The notes below the pieces were generated by a model, which worked only from the letters and a program-made list of their open reading frames with translations, was not told where the DNA came from and did not search any database. A program made the translations under genes and the position numbers. A stretch of DNA of 64,000 bases from Bacilli bacterium (GTDB lineage Bacteria; Bacillota_I; Bacilli_A; RF39; UBA660): assembly GCA_017548925.1 (NCBI GenBank), contig JAFYYX010000001.1, positions 734,852 to 798,851 of the forward strand, given 5' to 3'. Numbering within the stretch: position 1 is the first letter of the stretch; each line of letters opens with the position of its first letter. Shown in pieces: positions 1-34,437 of the stretch.

Positions 1-245
1 ATTATCATTCCTTTATTTGGATAACCTTTTATATCAACCCAGTGTAATTGTCTTTCTTTTTTCATTTCTAGATTTTCTTTTATATTATCCACTTCTTTAG
101 ATATTTTTAAATCTTTATCTTTATTAAGAATTAAGGCAGTCAATATAAAGTATTTAGAACCCTTATTAATTCCCTCATCACCAGATTCATCAATGTATAC
201 ATTATATTCTTTTTGTTTTAAAGCTTGTTTACCTACAGATATCAT
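1..245 (-). CDS. DUF3800 family protein, N-terminal part (runs off the left edge)
   Basis: The reading frame starts at the ATG at 245-243 behind a strong RBS (AGGAGGTGG) and stays open to the window edge, so only about 81 N-terminal residues are present. The segment YIDESGDEG, about 20 residues in, is the acidic signature of DUF3800, a family with an RNase H-like fold often found in mobile or defence neighbourhoods and of unproven activity. The segment QLHWVDIKG follows, as expected in this family. A second, unrelated-looking DUF3800 gene lies at about 34 kb. The family call is fairly safe; the function is unknown. Confidence 0.75.
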   Translation of the reverse strand, partial: MISVGKQALKQKEYNVYIDESGDEGINKGSKYFILTALILNKDKDLKISKEVDNIKENLEMKKERQLHWVDIKGYPNKGMI

Positions 246-27530: not shown

Positions 27531-27616
27531 TATCTTATCGTTCTAGCTTTACCACCTAATCTAATAGGTTGGTGTGATTTCAACGGGCTAGTCCCTCAAT
27601 CACTCTTTATAAGATG
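27531..27616 (-). ncRNA. SAM-I (S-box) riboswitch of metK
   Basis: On the minus strand the S-box core is readable: CTTATAAAGAGTGATTGAGG, GACTAGCCCGTTGAAAT, CACCAACCT, AGGTGGTAAAGCTAGAACG and the closing GATAAGAT. It matches the SAM-I consensus (CTTATxAAGAG, GGGACTGGCCC, GATGAAA, CGGCAACC, GGTGCTAA, GATAAG). It regulates metK by SAM-dependent transcription termination. A TATAAT at about 27628-27633 (minus sense, overlapping the end of the upstream gene) is a likely promoter. Confidence 0.92.
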
Positions 27617-33570: not shown

Positions 33571-33605
33571 AAAAAAGACATTTCCAAAAAGGAAATATCT
33601 TTTTT
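33571..33605 (-). terminator. Terminator of the structured RNA candidate
   Basis: A 15-bp stem (AAAAAAGACATTTCC with GGAAATATCTTTTTT, one mismatch), loop AAAAA, followed on the minus strand by a T-rich tail (the arm ends in six T). Confidence 0.8.
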
Positions 33606-33697
33606 AAACAACGTTATTTGCCTTATTGCGATGACAACTAATATGCCACTTACCTAGCCAATTTCCGGGCGGCGCTCTCTAAGGACTTACTGCTAAC
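33571..33697 (-). ncRNA. Unidentified GC-rich structured RNA with its own promoter and terminator
   Basis: In otherwise AT-rich DNA this stretch holds a compact GC-rich core (minus strand: GAGAGCGCCGCCCGG, then AAATTGGCTAGGTAAGTGGC). Complementary parts suggest a three-way junction: CCTTA (33684-33680) with TAAGG (33625-33621), GCC with GGC, and TGGCA with TGTCA. A strong promoter lies upstream and an intrinsic terminator follows. No reading frame fits. I could not match it to tRNA, SRP RNA, tmRNA, RNase P, T-box or the common riboswitches. It may be a stand-alone regulatory RNA or a leader controlling the two-component system downstream. Confidence 0.55.
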
Positions 33698-33703
33698 AAA
33701 TAA

Positions 33704-33733
33704 AATATACATCATAGGTTTACTTATTGTCAA
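33704..33733 (-). promoter_or_regulatory. Strong sigma-A promoter of the structured RNA
   Basis: On the minus strand: TTGACA, an 18-bp spacer ending in TG, then TATATT. The -35 overlaps the stop codon of the DUF3800 gene. It is one of the best promoters in the window. Confidence 0.75.
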
Positions 33734-34437
33734 TAGTTAAATGGAAAATAAAATTCATTTTTTATATAATTATTCTTTCTCATATAATTTATCTCTTTAT
33801 CATACATTTTACCTTTAACAATATATGAGTAATATAGATTAGAAAATACATCAGCTATTTGTATTAACTCCTCTACCTCACTTTGATGATATTCAACTGT
33901 AAAACCAAGTTGTAAATGTTTTACTGTAACAAGTTCTATACATAAATACTCCTCAAGTGTATCAATAGTTCTTGTAGAAACATTTCTCTCATCAATGTGA
34001 AAATTATTATAATCTTTTTTTAAATTATTATTTGAAGAATTATATTCAATACATAATCTAACTAAATAATTAAATGCTCTAGCTTTATTTGTATAAAAAT
34101 AATTATCCGCTAATTGATTAGAGCAGCAAATATAATATAGTTCTATATAATTACACCTACAAAAAAATTCAGCAAATTTTACTTTAAGTTCTTTAGACAT
34201 AAATGAACCTTTTAATTCTTTAAATTTTCCCGATTTATAAAACATATTATGATGTTTATCATCACGTCTTAAAAGATCCAAATTAGCTGAAACAAACCTT
34301 TTATATGCTCTTTTAAGCATCTTAGGTTCTTTTACATTTACAACACATATTACAAAATACTGATTATATAAATATTTCAATCCTTTTTTAGTCATGCTCC
34401 CTGATTCATCAACATAAAAAGTATTAATATTTATCAC
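33730..34437 (-). CDS. DUF3800 family protein
   Basis: A protein of about 232-235 residues with the DUF3800 signature: TFYVDESGSM at the N-terminus and LIQIADVFSNLYY near the C-terminus, plus FHIDERN in the middle. The fold is RNase H-like with conserved acidic residues; activity is unproven. The start is unclear: the frame opens with a GTG at 34437 that is part of AGGTGA. By analogy with other genes here, translation should begin at 34428, where the codon is ATT rather than ATG. The gene is monocistronic, between the RNA candidate and the ABC exporter terminator. Confidence 0.75.
   Translation of the reverse strand: MININTFYVDESGSMTKKGLKYLYNQYFVICVVNVKEPKMLKRAYKRFVSANLDLLRRDDKHHNMFYKSGKFKELKGSFMSKELKVKFAEFFCRCNYIELYYICCSNQLADNYFYTNKARAFNYLVRLCIEYNSSNNNLKKDYNNFHIDERNVSTRTIDTLEEYLCIELVTVKHLQLGFTVEYHQSEVEELIQIADVFSNLYYSYIVKGKMYDKEINYMRKNNYIKNEFYFPFNY

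What the first reader, a model, noticed from the sequence alone, without database searches (positions are those of the whole stretch)
33571..33733. Unidentified GC-rich structured RNA with strong promoter and terminator
A TTGACA-18-TATATT promoter, a GC-rich core in very AT-rich DNA with pairing that fits a three-way junction, and a strong terminator followed by another promoter. No protein frame. I could not assign it to any RNA class I know. It may be a new small RNA or riboswitch-like element next to a two-component system.
Basis: partly seen in the sequence, partly recalled or inferred. Interest (0 to 1): 0.62.

Follow-up and report, generated by a model that had tools for sequence, protein, structure and literature searches.

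The report
New RNA partner of DUF3800 nucleases
The sequence encodes a small folded RNA that is inherited together with a neighbouring gene for an RNase-H-like nuclease (DUF3800) in gut bacteria, phages and phage satellites; the pair looks like a two-part RNA-protein system, perhaps a toxin and its RNA antidote, and this RNA class is absent from the RNA family database.

Summary
On the minus strand, 33733-33571, lie a near-consensus promoter, a ~90-nt structured RNA and a terminator. Comparative data support the structure strongly: P1, a two-part P2 closing a three-way junction, P3 and P4. In 41 aligned sequences 20 of 24 pairs change on both sides, and 95.6% of cells pair versus 34-42% for slid controls. 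Rfam 15 has no match. The 'riboswitch beside a two-component system' reading is wrong: the RNA belongs to the upstream gene 34428-33730(-), a DUF3800 protein with a predicted RNase HII-like fold. In every assessable relative found by protein (50 loci: Bacilli, Lachnospiraceae, Treponema, prophages, Listeria phage PSA, streptococcal satellite phages) this RNA lies beside the DUF3800 gene, upstream or downstream, usually with its own promoter. It is a new class of a known kind, the DUF3800-associated RNAs; its core aligns with Rfam DUF3800-I. No intact DUF3800 gene found lacks the RNA, but eight lineages keep the RNA with a broken or absent gene, including one clean gene deletion and phage orphan RNAs without promoters. 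The gene often starts with AUU. Best model: a trans-acting ribonucleoprotein pair in which the RNA restrains the nuclease (antitoxin-like). An activating cofactor is the main rival.

The parts
33728..33733 (-). -35 box TTGACA of the RNA promoter; overlaps the DUF3800 stop codon
   Evidence: same position in 48/51 relatives
33610..33700 (-). conserved structured RNA core (R1 match 71.2 bits)
33693..33699 (-). P1 5' strand; invariant AGUAAGU-like single strand follows (33691-33685)
33680..33684 (-). P2 5' strand CCUUA
33673..33676 (-). P2b 5' strand, closes the three-way junction
33653..33672 (-). P3: two-pair stem (CC 33672-33671 / GG 33654-33653) with a variable apical part
33631..33649 (-). 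P4 hairpin GUGGCA...UGUCAU, preceded by conserved GUAAG
33627..33630 (-). P2b 3' strand
33621..33625 (-). P2 3' strand UAAGG
33611..33617 (-). P1 3' strand
33571..33605 (-). intrinsic terminator hairpin with U-run
33730..34428 (-). DUF3800 gene (PF12686), predicted RNase HII-like nuclease, probable AUU start at 34428 (ORF open from GTG 34437)

Best explanation
The element is the RNA half of a two-gene ribonucleoprotein cassette: a DUF3800 RNase-H-fold protein plus a separately transcribed ~90-nt structured RNA. Shown here: the RNA is conserved, structured, and a near-obligate genetic partner of one DUF3800 lineage across phyla and mobile elements, with either gene order, so it most likely acts in trans and is not a leader of the next gene. 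Inferred: the protein binds the RNA; the RNA, made from a strong promoter, holds a potentially harmful nuclease in check while the nuclease is weakly translated (AUU start in this clade). Release, for example when a phage disturbs RNA supply, would let the nuclease attack RNA or RNA:DNA. It would thus work like a type III toxin-antitoxin or abortive-infection module without belonging to that family. Confidence about 0.97 that the RNA is the functional partner of DUF3800, about 0.45 for the inhibitory direction.
For: Partnership: all 50 assessable protein-selected loci have the RNA adjacent (20 genome; 26 viral; 4 phage/satellite). In 386 family genomes the RNA model hits exactly 10 genomes that also have close DUF3800 genes or remnants, plus one false hit inside a coding gene. 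RNA and protein distances correlate (Mantel r 0.91, 0/5000 permutations). Trans action: own promoter and terminator; RNA upstream of the gene in Treponema bryantii L072, L115 and L151. Nuclease: model pLDDT 90.8, best PDB matches RNase HII (E 3e-5), D10, E11, E74, D149, E150, D196 invariant. Antitoxin-like: RNA kept with broken or absent gene in eight lineages (G376, G217, L098, L101/L104, L144, L148, L097, L106), never the reverse. G782 lost DUF3800 between an 88.6% identical upstream gene and an 86% identical M32 peptidase yet kept RNA, promoter and terminator. Phage orphans L097 and L106 have no own promoter. AUU starts in most window-clade genes.
Against: No expression, binding or toxicity data. 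Asymmetric decay also fits a cofactor: a protein without its RNA may be useless, while a lone RNA is cheap. Some broken genes may be assembly errors. AUU starts are clade-specific; most Lachnospiraceae and phage homologues use AUG or UUG. The orphan RNA in G782 shows two mismatches in P2, suggesting relaxed constraint.
Confidence: 0.5

Rival explanations
1. The RNA is an activating cofactor or scaffold of the DUF3800 nuclease (an RNP effector), not an inhibitor.
For: Same obligate pairing; DUF3800 proteins occur as accessories in some Cas12a2-type loci and were proposed to act in interference or crRNA handling (PMC10910872; PMC12669027); loss of the RNA would make the protein useless, which also gives the decay asymmetry.
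Against: No guide-like variable segment: the only variable part is the P3 apex, similar among relatives. Maintained orphan RNAs and promoter-less phage orphans are less expected.
Confidence: 0.35
2. The RNA is a substrate or processing product of DUF3800, or represses DUF3800 expression, with the physiological target elsewhere.
For: Adjacency and conserved single-stranded AGUAAGU and GUAAG motifs that a nuclease could recognise.
Against: RNA retained where the gene is deleted; both gene orders occur, so cis control through one transcript is unlikely.
Confidence: 0.12
3. Riboswitch or leader controlling the downstream response regulator.
For: It lies about 110 nt upstream of the regulator gene.
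Against: Terminator and separate promoter in between; G001 has the regulator without the RNA; downstream genes differ among relatives.
Confidence: 0.02

Closest known systems
DUF3800-I RNA (Rfam RF02969)
   Same: Adjacent to a DUF3800 gene. Model R2 aligns to two RF02969 loci on the same strand and place (L024 21.8 bits full length; L008 14.3 bits over the junction core): two-part P2, small hairpin, UAAG, hairpin with a UGU loop.
   Different: RF02969 does not recognise the new RNA. RF02969 has extra 5' and 3' hairpins and no enclosing P1; in L008 it is convergent to the gene, whereas the new class has an enclosing P1 and the same strand as the gene.
DUF3800-VII RNA (Rfam RF02967)
   Same: DUF3800-adjacent RNA with a three-way junction; accompanies the second DUF3800 gene of this same genome (L006).
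   Different: No sequence match to R2 at E<=1; its terminator is part of the outer helix; convergent orientation in the loci examined.
Type III toxin-antitoxin systems (ToxIN, CptIN, TenpIN)
   Same: Nuclease gene plus separate structured RNA; phages can evade by carrying an RNA mimic (phage PhiTE, PMC3475682, abstract listed).
   Different: RNase H fold rather than the ToxN fold; single RNA unit rather than tandem repeats upstream of the toxin (defining features from own knowledge); RNA has its own promoter, usually downstream; toxicity untested.
RNase HII
   Same: Predicted fold; the DESG motif resembles the DEAG(R)G motif of RNase HII (motif from own knowledge) and acidic residues are invariant.
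   Different: No Pfam RNase HII match; TM-score only about 0.46; has a dedicated RNA partner.

Membership tests
DUF3800-associated RNAs (kind) | structured RNA next to a DUF3800 gene | tested here: met
   50/50 assessable loci
DUF3800-I..XI Rfam families | match to the family covariance model | tested here: not met
   no DUF3800 family match in the window (E up to 5), Lachnospiraceae relatives or viral relatives
DUF3800-I (RF02969) | shared three-way-junction core by homology | tested here: inconclusive
   R2 matches two RF02969 loci in place, 21.8 bits (E 4e-4 over 25 kb) and 14.3 bits
Type III toxin-antitoxin | ToxN/CptN/TenpN-family endoribonuclease | tested here: not met
   Pfam DUF3800; RNase HII-like fold
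Type III toxin-antitoxin | tandem-repeat RNA antitoxin upstream of the toxin | tested here: not met
   single unit with own promoter; two units only in L113
Type III toxin-antitoxin | toxin inhibited by its RNA | not testable with these tools
   needs an expression assay
RNA-guided nucleases (OMEGA/CRISPR) | variable guide segment | tested here: not met
   no hypervariable segment across 41 RNAs
RNA-guided nucleases (OMEGA/CRISPR) | RNase H-fold nuclease partner | tested here: met
Riboswitch | lies in the leader of a consistently associated downstream gene | tested here: not met
   terminator after the RNA; downstream genes vary

The most novel reading that the evidence does not exclude
DUF3800 plus its RNA is a new type of phage- and satellite-borne conflict system: an RNase-H-fold nuclease restrained by a folded RNA antitoxin, countered by other phages that carry promoter-less orphan copies of the RNA. 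The Rfam DUF3800 RNA classes and this one would descend from a single ancestral core.
Probability: 0.35. Interest if true: 0.82.

Novelty: new variant of a known kind. Interest (0 to 1): 0.62.

Why it matters
DUF3800-associated RNAs are catalogued as separate motifs without a known function. This adds a class that spans gut Bacilli, Lachnospiraceae, Treponema, Listeria phage PSA and streptococcal satellites, gives it a covarying structure and a protein with an RNase HII-like predicted fold, links its core to DUF3800-I, and provides natural gene deletions and orphan RNAs that make the partner-versus-antitoxin question directly testable in laboratory strains. It also bears on the unexplained DUF3800 accessory proteins of some Cas12a2 loci.

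Tried and rejected
Rfam at gathering and permissive thresholds: only chance matches, mostly microRNA families. Single-protein scans of genome and viral collections with the window protein found nothing; the alignment query worked. Single-sequence folding does not reveal the structure. The G122 RNA hit (L085, 27 bits) lies inside a coding gene and was rejected. PADLOC and NCBIfam: no match for these proteins. No sequence-level relative in the PDB. A link to the two-component system was rejected. Weinberg et al. 2017 (doi 10.1093/nar/gkx699), which I recall as the source of the DUF3800 motifs, is not held, so I could not compare with motifs that it may describe outside Rfam.

Full report
WHAT IS THERE. 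The feature is on the minus strand. A near-consensus promoter (TTGACA 33733-33728, 18 nt, TATATT 33709-33704) precedes a conserved core at 33700-33610, followed by a terminator hairpin at 33605-33571. No ORF of 50 aa or more lies there. Rfam 15 gives no gathering match there, and at E up to 5 only chance matches, mostly microRNA families. Folded alone, the window RNA is not stable (z +1.58), so the structure rests on comparison, not on thermodynamics.

THE MISSED NEIGHBOUR. The gene immediately upstream on the same strand (34428/34437-33730) encodes a DUF3800 protein (PF12686, E 1.8e-9). The RNA's -35 box overlaps its stop codon. Homologues of this protein in other genomes carry a recognisably similar RNA in the same place although the next gene differs.

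STRUCTURE. A hand-defined structure on 17 sequences has 24 pairs: P1, P2, P2b, P3, P4. 15 pairs change on both sides, 96.1% of cells pair, against 84.6% after shuffling and 28-49% when slid. A model built from it (R1) was used to collect 41 sequences. On these, 20 of 24 pairs change on both sides, 95.6% of cells pair, slid controls 34-42%, covariation score 0.755 versus 0.24 shuffled (this alignment was fitted to the structure, the first was a plain MAFFT alignment). Nearly invariant unpaired elements are AGUAAGU between P1 and P2 and GUAAG before P4. P3 is two pairs plus a variable apex.

PARTNERSHIP WITH DUF3800. In 386 genomes of the same family, the protein search and the RNA search pick the same 10 genomes. 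An eleventh protein genome, G356, has only a broken gene and no RNA; an eleventh RNA hit lies inside a coding gene. Loci chosen only by protein: 22 in genomes, of which 2 end at the contig edge and 20 have the RNA; 28 in viral contigs, of which 2 end at the contig edge, 24 are hit by R1 and the remaining two, L133 and L135, by R2; and 4 phage or satellite records, all hit by R2, namely Listeria phage PSA and streptococcal satellite phages. R2 had not been trained on PSA, L109, L133 or L135. In total 50 of 50 assessable loci. Several are near-identical, so independent lineages are fewer. The RNA is upstream of the gene in Treponema bryantii (L072), L115 and L151, elsewhere downstream. RNA and protein distances correlate with r = 0.91 (0/5000 permutations). 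48 of 51 RNAs have a promoter of at least 9/12 at a fixed position (shuffled mean 4.3) and 47 a terminator-like hairpin.

THE PROTEIN. AlphaFold2 gives a confident model (pLDDT 90.8). Its best PDB matches are RNase HII enzymes (E 3e-5 to 8e-4, TM about 0.46), with Piwi domains only at insignificant E-values. This agrees with the published remark that DUF3800 has an RNase H fold with a catalytic rearrangement (PMC10910872). D10, E11, E74, D149, E150 and D196 are invariant in 18 proteins, so an active nuclease is likely; this is inference.

RELATION TO KNOWN DUF3800 RNAS. The same genome's second DUF3800 gene (window 1-203) has an Rfam DUF3800-VII RNA, and a congener has DUF3800-I. The new RNA is not matched by those models. 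Conversely R2 matches two DUF3800-I loci at the annotated place and strand (21.8 and 14.3 bits), aligning the two-part P2, UAAG and the UGU-loop hairpin. I read this as a shared core, moderately supported.

MECHANISM. Both gene orders, own promoter and terminator argue for a trans-acting RNA. Decay is one-sided: eight lineages keep the RNA with a broken or absent gene (G376, G217, L098, L101/L104, L144, L148, L097, L106), and none found keeps an intact gene without RNA. The clearest case is G782: between a Cys/Met enzyme gene (88.6% identical) and an M32 peptidase gene (86%), which flank DUF3800 plus RNA in Lachnoanaerobaculum saburreum, DUF3800 is gone and RNA, promoter and terminator remain. 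Two phage contigs carry a well-conserved RNA with no own promoter and no DUF3800. Many genes of the window clade have AUU where relatives have AUG, several with an in-frame stop just upstream that excludes other starts, suggesting deliberately weak translation. Phage copies often sit between terminase and portal genes on the opposite strand, like other cargo. Together these favour an RNA that restrains a nuclease, but a required cofactor would give much of the same pattern.

VERDICT. Observation confirmed; interpretation partly right. A new class of DUF3800-associated RNA with strong structural and genetic evidence; its function is inferred.

Noticed in passing
window 1-203 and G000:C3 734263-734357 (L006 1246-1340): A second DUF3800 gene starts at the window edge; just outside the window it has a convergent Rfam DUF3800-VII RNA.
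   Followed up: partly
window 34428(-); L054, L057, L060, L066, L068: DUF3800 genes of this clade start with AUU, a very rare start codon, where relatives have AUG or UUG.
   Followed up: partly
window 27532-27615(-): SAM riboswitch (RF00162, 63 bits).
   Followed up: no
L113 3714-3794 and 3859-3939: Two tandem copies of the RNA after one DUF3800 gene, the first diverged and without promoter.
   Followed up: no
L015, L025, L028, L033, L038, L139, L131, L108: Many DUF3800 loci lie beside tRNA or tmRNA genes or next to an integrase/attP, suggesting integration at tRNA genes.
   Followed up: no
L097 7070-7150, L106 2554-2632: Orphan RNA without own promoter in phage replication and head-gene regions; possible decoys.
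   Followed up: partly
L033 2201-2278: A more distant DUF3800 group carries an RNA that matches R2 (33.6 bits), apparently with the terminator built into P1.
   Followed up: partly
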